From Leptolyngbya sp. SIO1E4 (lineage in GTDB: Bacteria > Cyanobacteriota > Cyanobacteriia > Phormidesmidales > Phormidesmidaceae): 64,000 nucleotides of DNA. A program made the translations under genes and the position numbers. The notes under the pieces were generated by a model that saw only the letters and a program-made list of their open reading frames with translations, was not told the origin of the DNA and searched no databases. Below are positions 10,681 to 35,811 of the stretch, piece by piece. Location of the stretch: positions 248,001 through 312,000 of the forward strand of contig JAAHFU020000003.1 in NCBI GenBank assembly GCA_010672825.2, in the 5' to 3' direction. Each line of letters opens with the position of its first letter. Position 1 is the stretch's first letter.

Positions 10681-10743
10681 AGATCCCCGGTTTCTCTTGC
10701 ACAGCTCAAAACATCTTGGACTGCGCCAAGAAACCGGGGATCT
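10681..10743. repeat. Long hairpin repeat
   Basis: AGATCCCCGGTTTCT and AGAAACCGGGGATCT form a perfect 15-bp stem around 33 nt. A diverged left half with the same loop bases (CTTGGA core) recurs at 31800-31845, within the open frame upstream of the AAA-WD40 gene. Confidence 0.7.
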
Positions 10744-19589: not shown

Positions 19590-19772
19590 AACAGCAAGGA
19601 TGGCTTCTACGCGATCAAGGCGGTCTTCGCTATTGGGGCAGGGTTTGAATGGCTCATTGAGGCTCTAGTGAAGTGAAACGTGTAACTTTTACGTTCCAGT
19701 CACCATGCTAGGCCATGTTGCTGCCTAGAGAAGAATGAAAAAAGAAGATTGAACCATACGGCATCTTTTCCA

Positions 19773-20825
19773 GTTTCAATCCCCTGGCGGGGAAGTGGTG
19801 GTTTGCGACTTTACAGCCAAGCCACTCCAAAGCATCTATGAGCTGTTTCAATCCCCTGGCGGGGAAGTGGTGGTTTGCGACGTATCAACCGCCACCCTTG
19901 AGGAAGCCATGCTTCTTGTTTCAATCCCCTGGCGGGGAAGTGGTGGTTTGCGACGGGCATGGAATTAGTATCTGAAAACGCCCAACTGCTAATGTTTCAA
20001 TCCCCTGACGGGGAAGTGGTGGTTTGCGACATATAAAACCCGATCCAAAAGTAAAGAGCCTTTAAGTTTCAATCCCCTGACGGGGAAGTGGTGGTTTGCG
20101 ACCGTTCATGGAGGAATGGAGCGGCAGTCGCTTGTTGTTTCAATCCCCTGACGGGGAAGTGGTGGTTTGCGACGGACTAAAGCGATCTATTGGCTCCTAC
20201 GAATCGGAGTTTCAATCCCCTGACGGGGAAGTGGTGGTTTGCGACCCACCCCAGCGGCTCTATCGTCCCCTCTGAAGGTGTTTCAATCCCCTGACGGGGA
20301 AGTGGTGGTTTGCGACAATACTCGCTAGGAAGCAGCATTACCCCTTGCTGGTTTCAATCCCCTGACGGGGAAGTGGTGGTTTGCGACCCTATCTAGAGCC
20401 TTACAGAGGCACAGCTTTGCTGTTTCAATCCCCTGACGGGGAAGTGGTGGTTTGCGACGAAGCCTAAGCACGTAATGGTAGACGATGGCGATGTTTCAAT
20501 CCCCTGACGGGGAAGTGGTGGTTTGCGACCTCACAAAGTCTAGTAATTGTCCCGGCCCTCACCGTTTCAATCCCCTGACGGGGAAGTGGTGGTTTGCGAC
20601 ATGGTTCCGTCAAAGTGCCTGGAGACGCGATTAGGCGATCGGTTTCAATCCCCTGACGGGGAAGTGGTGGTTTGCGACGACGGAGTCGTGAGCACTCCTT
20701 CAAGGTGTTCATGGTAGTTTCAATCCCCTGACGGGGAAGTGGTGGTTTGCGACATGCCCGTGTGTGCATAGGCCAATCGTTTCTAATCGTTTCAATCCCC
20801 TGACGGGGAAGTGGTGGTTTGCGAC
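19773..20825 (-). CRISPR. Orphan CRISPR array, 15 repeats of 37 bp, 14 spacers
   Basis: Repeats begin GTTTCAATCCCC and end GTGGTGGTTTGCGAC on the plus strand. They start at 19773, 19845, 19918, 19994, 20066, 20137, 20209, 20280, 20351, 20422, 20493, 20564, 20642, 20717 and 20789. Spacers are 34-41 bp (mostly 34-35). Read on the minus strand, repeats end in ATTGAAAC, the usual 5' handle of crRNAs, and contain a TTCCCCGTCAGGGG-type stem, so transcription is inferred to run right to left. The three leftmost repeats carry CTGGCGGGG instead of CTGACGGGG, as expected for the old, leader-distal end. The repeat resembles type III-associated repeats of Synechocystis from memory. No cas gene lies in the window. 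Confidence 0.97.
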
Positions 20826-21091
20826 GGCGGTCGCTTCAAGCGCTGAGTTAGAGACCCTTTCAGACCCCGACTGCGCGGATCCCAAAATTTATAGCCCATA
20901 ACTCACCCTTCAGATCAAAAAACCCTCAAAGCAAACCTGCAAAAGCCGCTCCTAGTCAGAAGTACAGCCCTTGCGCGGATCCCCCTGGCTGAGCCAAACG
21001 CTCAAACCCAGACGTGTCAGGCAACCTAGCCCCTCAACTGACTCAAGTTAGCTAAACACCTCCCCACCCGCGCATCACCCCTTACAGAGGC
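20826..21091 (-). promoter_or_regulatory. Probable CRISPR leader region
   Basis: It adjoins the conserved-repeat end of the array. It holds two copies of GCGCGGATCCC exactly 100 bases apart (20873 and 20973) and an AT-rich minus-strand stretch (TATAAATTTTGGG) about 60 bases before the first repeat that could serve as a promoter. No gene is apparent. Confidence 0.5.
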
Positions 21092-30149: not shown

Positions 30150-30460
30150 AACAGGACTCTCTCCTTTAGGGGCTGCAGTGGCCTATTGGTGAACCTATTG
30201 ATAACGACTTTGCATCTCTTTCAAGTTAATGTTAACGAATAGTCGCTGTATTTTGGTTGACCTCAAAGTTATCAACCTGGTTGGCCAAATAAACTGTCAA
30301 ATAAATTGTCCAGTTGGTGGATGTAGTCAGAAAACTGAACCTGTTACAGTAAGACGCTTGATTTAAAGCAGACTGCCCAAGGCTTAGCGTTATGGCCATT
30401 GAGACCACATTATGGGTGTCTCGCCATAGCTTGCTCCATCGTGAAGTTGGCATCTTAGGG
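30150..30460. promoter_or_regulatory. Divergent promoter spacer
   Basis: About 310 bases between the divergent small membrane protein and the HTH-AAA gene, moderately AT-rich with several AACTG/CAGTT motifs. No hairpin or repeat of the window families was found. An in-frame ATG at 30392 could extend the downstream gene into it. Confidence 0.35.
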
Positions 30461-31762
30461 ATGACGATCGCCAAGTTCAACCGTGTTTTTGAAGACCTGA
30501 CACCACGGCAGCGCAAAGTGCTGCAAGAATTTTTGGCTGGCTGCACGGATGAGGAAATCGCCCGATCGCTCTACTTAGAACCCTCTACAGTCAGACGGCA
30601 CCTGGCGAACATCTGTAAGCGGTTTAATCTCAGTGGCTTAGATCAGAGTCGCTATTCCCATCGGGATGAGCTTATCGACCTGTTTGCACAATTCAAGCCA
30701 GACATGGTTAGCCCAACTCTGATAGGCAAACTCGGCCTATCAGAACCTGAATTTCCTGGAAAACCGCTACCCTTAAATTCTCTGCGCTACGTTCAACGCC
30801 CCATTGAGCAACGATGTCAGCGGGAGATCCTTAAACCGGGCGCCCTCATCCGCATTCGGGCTCCCAGGCGCACGGGCAAAACCTCTCTGCTAAATCAGCT
30901 GTTAGGGTATGCCCGTTCAGCGTCCATCCGCACAATTTATTTGAACCTGCGTCAGACAGAAGCCCCTTTTTTGGCCAGTTTAGATGCCCTGCTGCGGTGG
31001 TTAAGCACCCTGATGAGTCAGCAGCTCGGTATTCCTCCTCGACTCGACGACTATTGGGATCATGAAAACTTTGGCAGCATTGTGAGCTGTACAACCTATG
31101 TTCAAGAGCATCTCCTGAGTCAGTGCCCCCATGAACTGCTGTTAGCCATTGATGAAGCCGACTGGTTATTTGAAGTGCCGAAAATAGCCCAAGGCTTTTT
31201 TGCCTTACTCAGAAGCTGGCATGAGGAAGCCAATAATCTCCCCCTTTGGCAACATTTACGCCTTGTGGTGGTGCATTCAACAGATGTGTACATTCCGCTC
31301 AACATTCACCAGTCTCCGTTTAATGTGGGGTTGCCCGTACGGTTGCCGAACTTTTCGGTAGAGCAGGTTCGGCTATTGGCCCTGCGCTATGACCTCAACG
31401 AAGCGACCCTGGCCAAGATTGATGCGCTAGTGACCCTGACCGGTGGCCATCCCTATCTAGTGCAGTTAGCTTTATATGCACTCTGGCGCCAAGAAAGTGA
31501 GTTTGATGAGTTATTGAAAATGGCCTCCACCCAGTCTGGCATTTACAGTCATGACCTCCGACGCTGTTGGCAACTGCTACAGAATTGCCCTGATTTGCTG
31601 TCGTCTCTCAAGGCCGTGATTGAGGCATCCCCTGAGGGAGCACAGCTAGACCCCGTCTGCGCATACAAGCTGGAAAGTATGGGCTTAGTGCGACTGCAGG
31701 GCAATTGGGTCACCCTGAGCTGCGACCTCTATCGGCAGTATTTTAGCGATCGCCTGCTGTGA
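30461..31762 (+). CDS. HTH-AAA ATPase (AAA_35-like) with N-terminal LuxR/vMAP-type helix-turn-helix
   Basis: The 433-aa protein starts MTIAKFNRVFEDLTPRQRKV, then a GerE-like helix-turn-helix (CTDEEIARSLYLEPSTVRRHLANICKRF) and the block SHRDELIDLFAQFKPDMV. That order is typical of cyanobacterial proteins placed with vWA-MoxR/STAND conflict systems. An AAA-like ATPase follows with Walker A APRRTGKTS and Walker B LLLAIDEAD, and a C-terminal winged-helix-like region with LTGGHPYLVQLALYAL. The frame also has an ATG at 30392, but residues before MTIAKF are not family-like. The TGA stop overlaps a GTG at 31759, so coupling with the AAA-WD40 frame is possible. Confidence 0.8.
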   Translation: MTIAKFNRVFEDLTPRQRKVLQEFLAGCTDEEIARSLYLEPSTVRRHLANICKRFNLSGLDQSRYSHRDELIDLFAQFKPDMVSPTLIGKLGLSEPEFPGKPLPLNSLRYVQRPIEQRCQREILKPGALIRIRAPRRTGKTSLLNQLLGYARSASIRTIYLNLRQTEAPFLASLDALLRWLSTLMSQQLGIPPRLDDYWDHENFGSIVSCTTYVQEHLLSQCPHELLLAIDEADWLFEVPKIAQGFFALLRSWHEEANNLPLWQHLRLVVVHSTDVYIPLNIHQSPFNVGLPVRLPNFSVEQVRLLALRYDLNEATLAKIDALVTLTGGHPYLVQLALYALWRQESEFDELLKMASTQSGIYSHDLRRCWQLLQNCPDLLSSLKAVIEASPEGAQLDPVCAYKLESMGLVRLQGNWVTLSCDLYRQYFSDRLL

Positions 31763-31848
31763 GCCATCTCATCAGCATTCCCAAGGATGAAACAGCGGCC
31801 AGATCCTTGGTTTCAGTTGTCCAAGCTCGAAACGTCTTGGACGTGCCT

Positions 31849-31944
31849 TATAGCGGTATGCAGGCTAATCAAGCACACCCTAGACCCCAAACCCTAGACG
31901 CTGTCTTGACCCAGATGTACTGGACTCAACTGAACAAGGCCATA
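31849..31944 (+). repeat. Family C element inside the AAA-WD40 reading frame
   Basis: TATAGC start, CATA-ended 3' terminus, CCCTAGACCCCAAACCCTAG core. Preceded at 31800-31845 by a half copy of the hairpin repeat seen at 10681. Its 96 bp keep the upstream frame open, giving codons for MYWTQLNKAIA. Confidence 0.85.
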
Positions 31945-32061
31945 GCAACCGGGAACCTTCCAACCGGTATTTTCAAAGCCATCTGTGCATGTTTTTGCAC
32001 AAATCTGACCCTCGATCTAAAAGCAATAGCATGGATGGCAACCCCTCTTCCTGGCAATCAG

Positions 32062-35000
32062 ATGACATCCCTCCAACATGATTTTGAGTATCAAGTCGGC
32101 GGCAGTCTCCGGGCAAATTCTCCCAGTTATGTTGAGCGGCAGGCAGACCAAGACCTCTATGCAAGATTGCGAGTCGGGCATTTTTGCTATGTGTTCAACG
32201 CCCGTCAGATGGGCAAGTCGAGTTTACGGGTTAGGACGATGCGACGCCTCAAAGGCAATGGGGTCTGCTGCATAGCCCTTGATATGACCCGCATTGGTAG
32301 CGAACACCTCACCCCGCAGCAGTGGTATGCCCAAGTCATTTCTGAATTTTGGCGGGGGGCAAAGCTCCATCCGCACCTGAACTTAAAAAGCTGGTTGCAT
32401 GACCATGGGGAGGTACCTTACGCCCACCTGTTAGGGCGTTTCATCGATGAGGTGCTGTTAGATAAGATCCAGCAACCCATCGTAATTTTCATTGATGAAA
32501 TTGACAGCACCCTCAGCCTGCCATTCTCCATCAACGATTTTTTTGCGCTAATTCGAGCCTGCTACAACTATCGAGCAGATGATCACAGATACCGCCGTCT
32601 TACGTTCTGCCTGTTAGGGGTAGCAACCCCTGCAGACCTGATCACCGACAAGATGCGAACACCCTTTAACATTGGGCGCGCGATCGCCCTTAACGGCTTC
32701 ACCCCCGACGAAGTCAATGGACTTATCCGTGGGTTAAAAGGCTCGGTTGCCAACCCCAAGGAGGCGCTACAGCAGATTCTGCATTGGACAGGCGGTCAGC
32801 CGTTTTTGACCCAAAAACTCTGTCAGCTCGCGGCAGAGCTAACCGATCATTCAGTTGAGCACATCGTCCAAACGCATGTAATCACAAACTGGGAATCTCA
32901 AGATGAACCCGCCCACCTGCGAACGATTCGAGACCGGCTGCTGCAGGATGAACAGCGAGCTAATCGACTGCTGGGGCTGTATCAGCAGGTTCTAAGCCAA
33001 GGAAACATGGCAGCGGATGAGAGCGAAGCGCAGATGGAACTGCGGCTATCTGGATTGGTGGTTAAGCAGGGCCGTGACCTGCGAGTCTATAACCCCATTT
33101 ATGCAGCGGTGTTTAACTTAGCCTGGGTCAAGGCGACTTTAAACCAGCTGCGACCTTATGCAGTAGCTTTCAATGCCTGGCGGGCCTCACATGGGGCTGA
33201 TGAGTCGCGACTGTTGCGGGGGCAAGCCCTGGAAGAGGCACTGCAATGGGCCGCAGGGCGGAGTTTAAGCAACCAGGATGCGGAGTTTTTACGCGCCAGT
33301 CAGCAATTTGAAAATCGAGAAACCAAACAGGCCAATGAAATTTTGGCAGCCGCAAACCGCCAAGCTAAATGGCGAATTCGGATGGGTACCGTGGTGCTTG
33401 GTGCGTCCATTTTGGGGGCGATCGCCCTTAACCTCTGGACTAGCAACGCTGCCCGCCGAGCCCAGGAGATCGCCCACATCGAGCGAGAGAGTCGTAATGC
33501 CCTCGACCAGTTTGAGTTTGATCAGACAGCGGCCTTAAGTACCGCCCTACAAGCCGCCCATCAGTTGAGGCAATTCACCGGCAACCAGAAAACCTATCCA
33601 ACCACTCGACCCATCATCGCACTGCAAACAATTTTGGCCCAAATTCAAGAACAAAAGATTCCTTACAACACAACCGTCCAGTTTAGTCATCAGGGCCATC
33701 ATTTCATTACAGATGGAAGGGAGGGCATTACCGTATGGGATGGCCCAAGAAATCAGCGTGTTGCCCTCAAAGAAGTTCCTGAGTTTTCTGATGCAGTATT
33801 GAGTCCCGACGGTAGCCGCATTCTTGTGAGTGGTAATAACAGTGAAGATGATGAGAGATTAGTTCAACTATGGGATTCTCAAGGAAAGTATTTAGCCGCC
33901 TTGGAGGGGCATCCAGATATCGTTAATGTGGCTGAATTTAGCCCCAATAGTCAGTACTTTGTCACCGGCTCTATGGATGGCACAGCTATTTTGTGGAACG
34001 CAGATGGAAAACAAATTTCTAATCTGGGAGAACAAAATGGGCCAATTTTAAGCATACAGTTTAGTCCCGACGGACACCGGATTGGGATTGTCAGGGGAGA
34101 AGGCCCTGGTTCAGGATGGAGTGCTCAGATTGCCCAGGTTTGGAATCTGGAAGGTCAGCAGTTAGAAGCGTTTAACTGGCCTAGCCCATCGTTTTATATA
34201 ACGTTAAACCCAGACCTGGATCAAATTCTTACAGGTGGCCAAGTTTTCACAACCGATGAAGACAGACCTGCCCATCTCTGGGACTTTCAAGGAAATCAGC
34301 TCGCTGAATTCCCAGGAGAAGGGGGCGTTAGCCATATTGAATTTAGTTCTGATGGAGGTCTCATTGCAGCCCACACAAACACGAATTCCACAGTAAACGT
34401 GTGGGATCCTCAAGGAAATCAGCTTGCGAGCTTTAAGGTCAATCAATCGTCTATCAGTGACCTCGAATTCAGCCCAGATGGACGTCAAATTGCGATTGCT
34501 GGATTTTCTGAAAACAGCGGGACTGTTAGCCTTTGGAATCTGAGTGGCGATCGTTTAAAGCAATTTGAAATTCCGAATCGATTCAACATCATCCGGTTTA
34601 GCCCTGATGGTCACAATGTCGTGTTTGAAGAAGGAACGAATGAGGAAGAAATTTCCCTGAGAAGCACTTATTTATTACAGCTACAAGATCAGCAGGCTGT
34701 CACATTTGATGAGCAATCTGCAACTGTAGAAATGATCAGGTTTAGTCCAGACGGCAACTATGTGGCAATGCTTGGCATAGACGATATCACGCGCATCTTT
34801 GACCGTCAGGGCAAACAGATCTCAGCCTTTAAAGGGCATGAGGGTCGAGTAGATGAGATCCAGTTCAGCAATAAAGACAATCGCCTTGTAACCAGTGCAC
34901 ATGATCCGGTTGATGCCACCGTTCGCATCTGGGATGTAGACGGAAATCAGCTTTCAGTTCTAGAAGGGAATTGGATGCCTGAATGGGACAGTCCCATGAG

Positions 35001-35811
35001 TCTGGATGGCAATTATACGGCTACCTTTAAACGCCATGAGAGCACGGGACAAGTCAATATTCACATTTGGCATCTGGATGGTCGTTTAGTCGCTACCCTA
35101 GAGGACTTTGACTCAGCCGAAATTTTAGCCCTTAGAGTTAGCCATAACGGACAATATTTTGCACTTGGCCTCACAGATCATACGGCTCAGCTATTTGATG
35201 TAAACGGTAAAAAGTTAGCTGTTTTAGAACAGCATTCAGGCTGGGTCGAAGATCTGACATTTAATGTCGATGGCGATCGCATCTTGACCTTCGCGCAAAA
35301 TGATCATGCCCGTCTATGGGACTTACAAGGAAACCTCCTTGAAGAATTTCGAGACATGCATCTCGGCGGCTTTTATTCCATCGCTGCTACGCATCGCGAT
35401 CGCTTGATGACCGGGGGGCATCAGCCCACTTTATGGAATTTTGCAGGGGATCAAATTACAGCCCTTGCGCCTCGCCCAGGTTGGTTTGGTTCCGGCAAGA
35501 AGAATACTCAACTGAGTGCCAAGGGCGATCGCATTGCCACCTTAGGGGGAGATGGCAGAGTCAGGGTTTGGGATGATCGGGGGCAACAACTCGCTGAGTA
35601 TGAAGGCTATGCCATGGCCCTAAGTCCAGATGGGAAGCAAATTGTCGTGGTTTCTCGGGAAGACAATACCCCTCGCCTGTGGTCAGTCGATGAGCTAGAT
35701 AGCTTGCTAGAAAAAGGGTGTGATTGGCTGCGCCCCTATCTTGTTATCTCTGATGATGTTTTGAATGGCTATGGGAAGGAACTGACAACGTGTGATTTTG
35801 CTGACGAGTAA
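32062..35811 (+). CDS. AAA-like ATPase with transmembrane helix and WD40 repeats
   Basis: From the ATG at 32062 the product has 1249 aa. Residues 5-400 form an AAA_35 domain starting FEYQVGGSLRANSPSYVERQ, with Walker A NARQMGKSS near 47-55, DMTRIGSE, and Walker B VIFIDEIDS near 140-150. A single membrane helix lies near 437-455 (MGTVVLGASILGAIALNLW). After a helical stretch, about 14 WD40 blades (roughly 545-1215) carry FSPDGxxI and LWDxxGxxL signatures. The frame stays open up to GTG 31759, but those 101 codons are largely repeat DNA, so the conserved start is preferred. Such proteins are thought to act in signalling or conflict; the partner is probably the upstream HTH-AAA gene. Confidence 0.85.
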   Translation: MTSLQHDFEYQVGGSLRANSPSYVERQADQDLYARLRVGHFCYVFNARQMGKSSLRVRTMRRLKGNGVCCIALDMTRIGSEHLTPQQWYAQVISEFWRGAKLHPHLNLKSWLHDHGEVPYAHLLGRFIDEVLLDKIQQPIVIFIDEIDSTLSLPFSINDFFALIRACYNYRADDHRYRRLTFCLLGVATPADLITDKMRTPFNIGRAIALNGFTPDEVNGLIRGLKGSVANPKEALQQILHWTGGQPFLTQKLCQLAAELTDHSVEHIVQTHVITNWESQDEPAHLRTIRDRLLQDEQRANRLLGLYQQVLSQGNMAADESEAQMELRLSGLVVKQGRDLRVYNPIYAAVFNLAWVKATLNQLRPYAVAFNAWRASHGADESRLLRGQALEEALQWAAGRSLSNQDAEFLRASQQFENRETKQANEILAAANRQAKWRIRMGTVVLGASILGAIALNLWTSNAARRAQEIAHIERESRNALDQFEFDQTAALSTALQAAHQLRQFTGNQKTYPTTRPIIALQTILAQIQEQKIPYNTTVQFSHQGHHFITDGREGITVWDGPRNQRVALKEVPEFSDAVLSPDGSRILVSGNNSEDDERLVQLWDSQGKYLAALEGHPDIVNVAEFSPNSQYFVTGSMDGTAILWNADGKQISNLGEQNGPILSIQFSPDGHRIGIVRGEGPGSGWSAQIAQVWNLEGQQLEAFNWPSPSFYITLNPDLDQILTGGQVFTTDEDRPAHLWDFQGNQLAEFPGEGGVSHIEFSSDGGLIAAHTNTNSTVNVWDPQGNQLASFKVNQSSISDLEFSPDGRQIAIAGFSENSGTVSLWNLSGDRLKQFEIPNRFNIIRFSPDGHNVVFEEGTNEEEISLRSTYLLQLQDQQAVTFDEQSATVEMIRFSPDGNYVAMLGIDDITRIFDRQGKQISAFKGHEGRVDEIQFSNKDNRLVTSAHDPVDATVRIWDVDGNQLSVLEGNWMPEWDSPMSLDGNYTATFKRHESTGQVNIHIWHLDGRLVATLEDFDSAEILALRVSHNGQYFALGLTDHTAQLFDVNGKKLAVLEQHSGWVEDLTFNVDGDRILTFAQNDHARLWDLQGNLLEEFRDMHLGGFYSIAATHRDRLMTGGHQPTLWNFAGDQITALAPRPGWFGSGKKNTQLSAKGDRIATLGGDGRVRVWDDRGQQLAEYEGYAMALSPDGKQIVVVSREDNTPRLWSVDELDSLLEKGCDWLRPYLVISDDVLNGYGKELTTCDFADE

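What the first reader, a model, noticed from the sequence alone, without database searches (positions are those of the whole stretch)
31759..32061. Repeats form the 5' end of the AAA-WD40 reading frame
The frame of the AAA-WD40 gene is open from GTG 31759, which overlaps the stop of the HTH-AAA gene. The first 101 codons consist of half a hairpin repeat (31800-31845, like 10681) and a full C element (31849-31944). Either the repeats have been recruited as an N-terminal extension (the 96 bp keep the frame), or they separate what was a coupled gene pair and translation now starts at 32062.
Basis: partly seen in the sequence, partly recalled or inferred. Interest (0 to 1): 0.55.

Follow-up and report, generated by a model that had tools for sequence, protein, structure and literature searches.

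The report
Transposon remnant opens a chance frame
A short mobile repeat of a kind found in many places in this cyanobacterium-like genome has jumped into the gap between two neighbouring genes and happens to leave an open reading frame; the second gene most likely still starts after the repeat, so this looks ordinary.

Summary
The described features are real: GTG 31759 overlaps the HTH-AAA stop, the frame is open to 35811, and 31849-31944 is a full C element. "Recruited, and the 96 bp keep the frame" is not supported. C behaves as a non-autonomous IS630/Tc1-type element (MITE): at 7 of 8 insertions tested the fit is best with one TA duplicated, so the net gain is 94 bp, which shifts the frame. 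Here it sits in the TA of a decayed hairpin whose halves lie on either side. With 94 bp taken out, the GTG frame ends at a TAG at the insertion site, and the AAA-WD40 frame is closed by TGA 31788-31790; the long frame came with the insertion. The 101-codon extension scores as non-coding. C shows no peptide-level constraint and lies in a kept ORF of 120 aa or more in 1 of 49 full-length copies, this one. In the nearest orthologous pair (G016) 8 bp separate stop and start, without C, and the start corresponds to about 32062. Repeats separate a formerly close gene pair and translation starts at ATG 32062 (or 32035). An N-extended isoform by re-initiation at the GTG is not excluded.

The parts
30392..31762 (+). 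HTH-AAA gene (LuxR-type GerE HTH + AAA_35), upstream partner of the pair
31759..31761 (+). GTG that overlaps the HTH-AAA stop; possible re-initiation codon, probably not the start of the AAA-WD40 protein
31788..31790 (+). TGA that closes the AAA-WD40 frame in the reconstructed allele without C
31801..31848 (+). left half of a decayed hairpin element (H), like 10681-10743
31849..31944 (+). C element: IS630-type MITE, TATAGC...GCCATA, flanking TA duplicated (net 94 bp), inserted into H
31945..31958 (+). probable right half of H, displaced by C (weak when taken alone)
31959..32061 (+). spacer without other copies in the genome at the sensitivity used, non-coding by hexamer score, with a stem at about 31978-32039
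32035..32037 (+). alternative in-frame ATG
32062..35811 (+). AAA_35-WD40 gene, 1249 aa, from its probable start ATG 32062

Best explanation
A non-autonomous IS630/Tc1-type element (C, 94 bp net) jumped into a TA within an older hairpin element that already lay between two adjacent, co-oriented genes, an HTH-AAA regulator and an AAA-WD40 protein. The C frame that happens to be read is the one of its six without stops. The shift of one base brought by the insertion joined the open stretch behind GTG 31759 to the open stretch ahead of the AAA-WD40 gene. The 101-codon 'extension' is therefore mostly or wholly 5' untranslated spacer, and translation of the AAA-WD40 protein starts at ATG 32062 (or ATG 32035). 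Shown: the anatomy, the TA duplication in the family, the orthologue without the spacer, and the absence of a coding signature. Inferred: that the same duplication happened at this very site, the start codon actually used, and any loss of coupling.
For: Empty sites: the model with one TA kept (94 bp net) scores best at 7 of the 8 C insertions tested (copies 3, 12, 17, 18, 27 and 29 and L019; 18 and 27 share a flank, so about 6 events). Joined flanks at the window site align with the hairpin better than either half. In the empty allele the GTG frame stops after 30 codons and is not the AAA frame. The extension scores -0.141 per codon pair: 0.4th percentile of coding stretches, 78th of open non-coding ones. 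More than half of the element lies in a kept ORF of 120 aa or more in 1 of 49 copies, this one. Substitutions among the 42 96-bp copies fall evenly on codon positions (116/105/123), and distinct changes syn/non/stop are 25/72/4 against 60/214/14 possible. Orthologue G016 has an 8-bp gap and no C match in its (83% complete) genome. Pair spacing 10-203 nt in 33 other pairs. The left end of C matches the end of a DDE_3 (PF13358) element at 25 of 29 bases.
Against: At the window site itself the one-TA model wins only narrowly (57 against 55 and 55), and the joined flanks of this copy gave no spanning match in the first search; under a 96-bp insertion the empty allele would have been open in frame too. 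Copy 26 fits TATA better (199 against 195 and 184), and copy 3 rests on a 77% match of 44 bases. The frame is in fact open from a codon that overlaps the upstream stop, a classical re-initiation layout. The C stretch alone scores at the 97th percentile of open non-coding stretches and the 15th of coding ones; the left stretch at the 86th and 4th. No Shine-Dalgarno-like sequence is evident before 32062 or before 31759 (by eye). No other genome of the same genus appeared among the relatives searched, and the nearest orthologue is only 58-65% identical, so the empty allele itself was not seen.
Confidence: 0.85

Rival explanations
1. The insertion created a real N-terminally extended isoform: ribosomes that finish HTH-AAA re-initiate at GTG 31759 and read through H and C into AAA-WD40, giving a 1350-aa protein beside or instead of the 1249-aa one.
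For: GTGA overlap and an uninterrupted frame. Only 2 differences from the common form of C (element positions 52 and 93), neither making a stop.
Against: Non-coding score of the whole extension; no such extension seen in the relatives compared; such NTGA ends occur in 43 of 336 long frames anyway.
Confidence: 0.09
2. The hairpin and C entered inside the original coding 5' end (VSHLISIPKDET... resembling MMTIPHTEP of G016), so the gene once began at 31759 and was split, and the later C insertion restored the frame.
For: A short likeness of the first residues.
Against: DNA likeness after the stop is not above chance (1511 of 2000 shuffles reach it); the left 30 codons score at the 4th percentile of coding.
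Confidence: 0.04
3. C is a coding cassette that inserts into genes in frame, like Rickettsia palindromic elements.
For: Frame 0 is open in 40 of 42 96-bp copies.
Against: 1 of 49 copies lies in a kept ORF of 120 aa or more; no codon-position bias.
Confidence: 0.02

Closest known systems
MITEs of IS630/Tc1-mariner-type insertion sequences (IS630 family; ISY100 of Synechocystis, PMC2170065: start of abstract and passages seen)
   Same: TA target, TA duplication, short TATAGC terminal repeats, left end like the end of a DDE_3 element in the same genome, no transposase of its own, many copies
   Different: The perfect terminal inverted repeat is only about 6 bp; the inner part holds telomere-like CCCTAGA/CCCCAAA heptads; no intact parent was recognised among the loci of 21 DDE_3 matches by a simple search for the ends
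Rickettsia palindromic elements and other intragenic MITEs that give in-frame fusions (review PMC10969869: section 4.2 and passages read)
   Same: A small mobile repeat with an open frame joined in frame to a host gene
   Different: Lies ahead of the probable start, in 1 of 49 copies, with no sign of constraint on the peptide
Cyanobacterial heptamer repeats (STRR; recalled) and the MITE Nezha (seen only as a reference-list entry)
   Same: Dispersed repeats of cyanobacteria; STRR are built of heptads (recalled)
   Different: Not compared by sequence here

Membership tests
IS630/Tc1-mariner-type MITE | TA target with TA duplication | tested here: met
   One-TA model best at 7 of 8 insertions, copy 26 the exception; 43 of 49 copies gave no usable empty site
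IS630/Tc1-mariner-type MITE | ends related to those of an IS630-type element of the same genome | tested here: met
   Left end 25 of 29 identical to the end of the DDE_3 element in L169, E 1e-4; the right end was not matched to that element
IS630/Tc1-mariner-type MITE | terminal inverted repeats | tested here: met
   TATAGC...GCTATA, short
IS630/Tc1-mariner-type MITE | multicopy, short, no transposase | tested here: met
   49 full-length copies in 864 kb, mostly 96 bp
IS630/Tc1-mariner-type MITE | moved in trans by a transposase | not testable with these tools
   The candidate element in L169 looks interrupted (inference from the ORFs)
RPE-like coding cassette | frequent in-frame insertion inside genes | tested here: not met
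   1 of 49 copies in a kept ORF of 120 aa or more
RPE-like coding cassette | peptide under constraint | tested here: not met

The most novel reading that the evidence does not exclude
A frame-shifting transposon insertion has created, in one step, a re-initiation-coupled N-terminal extension of 101 residues on an AAA-WD40 protein, an evolutionary intermediate in which both starts are used.
Probability: 0.08. Interest if true: 0.45.

Novelty: new member of a known kind. Interest (0 to 1): 0.2.

Why it matters
It shows how a mechanical frame call can turn an intergenic mobile element into an apparent protein extension, and that the target duplication has to be subtracted before an insertion is called frame-keeping. 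If the long isoform were made, it would be a clear one-step case of a new N-terminus.

Tried and rejected
Rfam at gathering thresholds gave 3 matches in the window, all CRISPR repeats. Pfam found nothing in the 101-aa extension. Searches of the own genome with the two flanking parts gave only themselves and 16-19-nt matches. A search with the 10681 hairpin at E 0.01 found only itself and its own reverse complement, not the 31801 half. Asking for the order gave the same number of genomes as the family (63) and no orthologue nearer than G016. The named-genome scan found no relative (15 pattern matches, none confirmed); the spare scan was not used. The promoter/terminator scan found none. Passages of PMC7159879 concern vWA-MoxR conflict systems; nothing from them is used. 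One search used a faulty pattern and was replaced. In one search, 34 distinct places came out of 51 sources (window, 20 regions, 30 loci); places without the end motif within 700 nt were not counted, one row (L111, 178 nt) rests on a motif that may not be the end of an AAA gene, and L068 is a second pair of the own genome. The regions were chosen by hand from the list, mostly because two AAA hits lay near each other. The non-coding yardstick is other frames and the reverse strand of genes, not intergenic DNA.

Full report
What is there. The window is part of an 8.2-Mb genome; the gene content points to a cyanobacterium (inference from general knowledge; no call named the organism). The HTH-AAA gene (GerE + AAA_35) ends at 31762. 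GTG 31759 overlaps this stop, and the frame is open to 35811. The AAA_35-WD40 protein counted from ATG 32062 already holds nearly the whole AAA_35 profile (positions 4-329 of 331), from residue 14.

Comparison with relatives. In G016, the nearest orthologue found (58% for HTH-AAA; 65% for the AAA part), the first gene stops at 2931 and the second starts at ATG 2940 of L061, with N-terminus MMTIPHTEPNSEYEYQVGGSL. The window from 32062 reads MTSLQHDFEYQVGGSL. In 33 other places with such a pair (one of them in the own genome) the distance from the stop to the conserved GG is 10-203 nt; in the window it is 335 nt, the largest of 34. C was matched in 3 of 63 genomes of the family including its own; the other two only weakly (G022 at 69-70%, G039 over 29-33 bases); G016 had none.

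The C element. It is 96 bp, TATAGC...GCTATA, with 49 full-length copies and 98 hits of any length in 864 kb. The genome-wide search scored only 40 of 570 candidates, so no genome-wide count is claimed. For 6 of the 49 copies the joined flanks found an uninterrupted counterpart. With the window copy and L019 added, taking out 94 bp and leaving one TA gives the best fit at 7 of 8 insertions; copy 26 is the exception and two (18, 27) share a flank. That is the signature of IS630/Tc1-type transposition (PMC2170065, passages). An IS630-type (DDE_3) element in L169 has an end that matches the left end of C at 25 of 29 bases; its ORFs suggest that it is interrupted by another insertion (compared with L168; inference). 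C is thus best filed as an IS630-type MITE.

The hairpin. Left (31801-31848) and right (31945-31958) halves, joined with one TA, align with the intact hairpin at 10681-10743 at score 57, against at most 29 in 2000 shuffles; the left half alone scores 46 (at most 36), the right alone 18 (reached by 81 of 2000). The intact copy folds at -34.7 kcal/mol, z -6.95. So C probably sits within an older hairpin element. The genome-scale searches at their thresholds did not link the two places.

The frame. With 94 bp removed the GTG frame ends in TAG at the junction after 30 codons, and the AAA frame reaches back 59 codons before 32062 to the TGA at 31788-31790. The present continuous frame therefore came with the insertion, if the usual duplication holds here. 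It need not have been selected: shuffled flanks are both open in about 21% of cases (0.64 x 0.33), times one in six for phase and orientation of C (inference). Of 49 copies this one alone is joined to a long frame (1354 codons from stop to stop; the next longest is 139), and it alone lies in a kept ORF of 120 aa or more.

Coding signal. A hexamer model trained on long ORFs (320 found, the gene itself left out of training) gives -0.141 for the extension; coding stretches of that length average 0.520 (5th percentile 0.117), open non-coding ones -0.410 (95th percentile 0.069). By parts: left -0.090, C 0.215, right -0.424; the C part alone is ambiguous. The first 101 codons after 32062 score 0.165. 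C copies vary evenly over codon positions, and synonymous, non-synonymous and stop changes occur about as chance allows.

Mechanism. Most likely the repeats enlarged the gap of a close gene pair. Translation of the second gene then depends on its own start at 32062 or 32035, on a transcript that may be shared, since no promoter- or terminator-like site was found at 31700-32100 (promoters of other types would be missed). Re-initiation at the GTG, giving an extended isoform, remains possible. A review states that in-frame fusions by intragenic MITEs are not unusual (PMC10969869, section 4.2), so even that outcome would be a known kind. Literature searches were made; no claim is made that this family is unpublished.

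Noticed in passing
31849-31944 and the other C copies: The inner heptads give a G-quadruplex-like motif on the bottom strand in 40 of 49 full-length copies (26 of 28 with at least 90% identity); the window copy has lost it by a C-to-G change at element position 52.
   Followed up: partly
864 kb examined (window, L125-L164): The 48 C copies outside kept ORFs lie between convergent genes more often than gaps of 100 bp or more do (16 of 48 against 72 of 404, p about 0.02, not corrected for gap length).
   Followed up: partly
L169:503-2033: An IS630-type element with TATAGCGGTGTGCA ends, apparently split by another transposase-like gene; a possible decayed parent of C.
   Followed up: partly
31755-32075: The spacer RNA as a whole folds better than 99 of 100 shuffles (z -2.40), and 31978-32039 forms a stem just ahead of ATG 32062 (31975-32070: -23.5 kcal/mol, z -1.84).
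   Followed up: no
L153:18863-18958 and flanks: C has jumped into a member of another dispersed family (CAAAACCTTGCTGCATAAGGATTCCAGG...); 20 other places matched the joined flanks.
   Followed up: no
window 19772-20841: CRISPR array, 15 repeats, 3 of them over the Rfam CRISPR-DR18 threshold.
   Followed up: no
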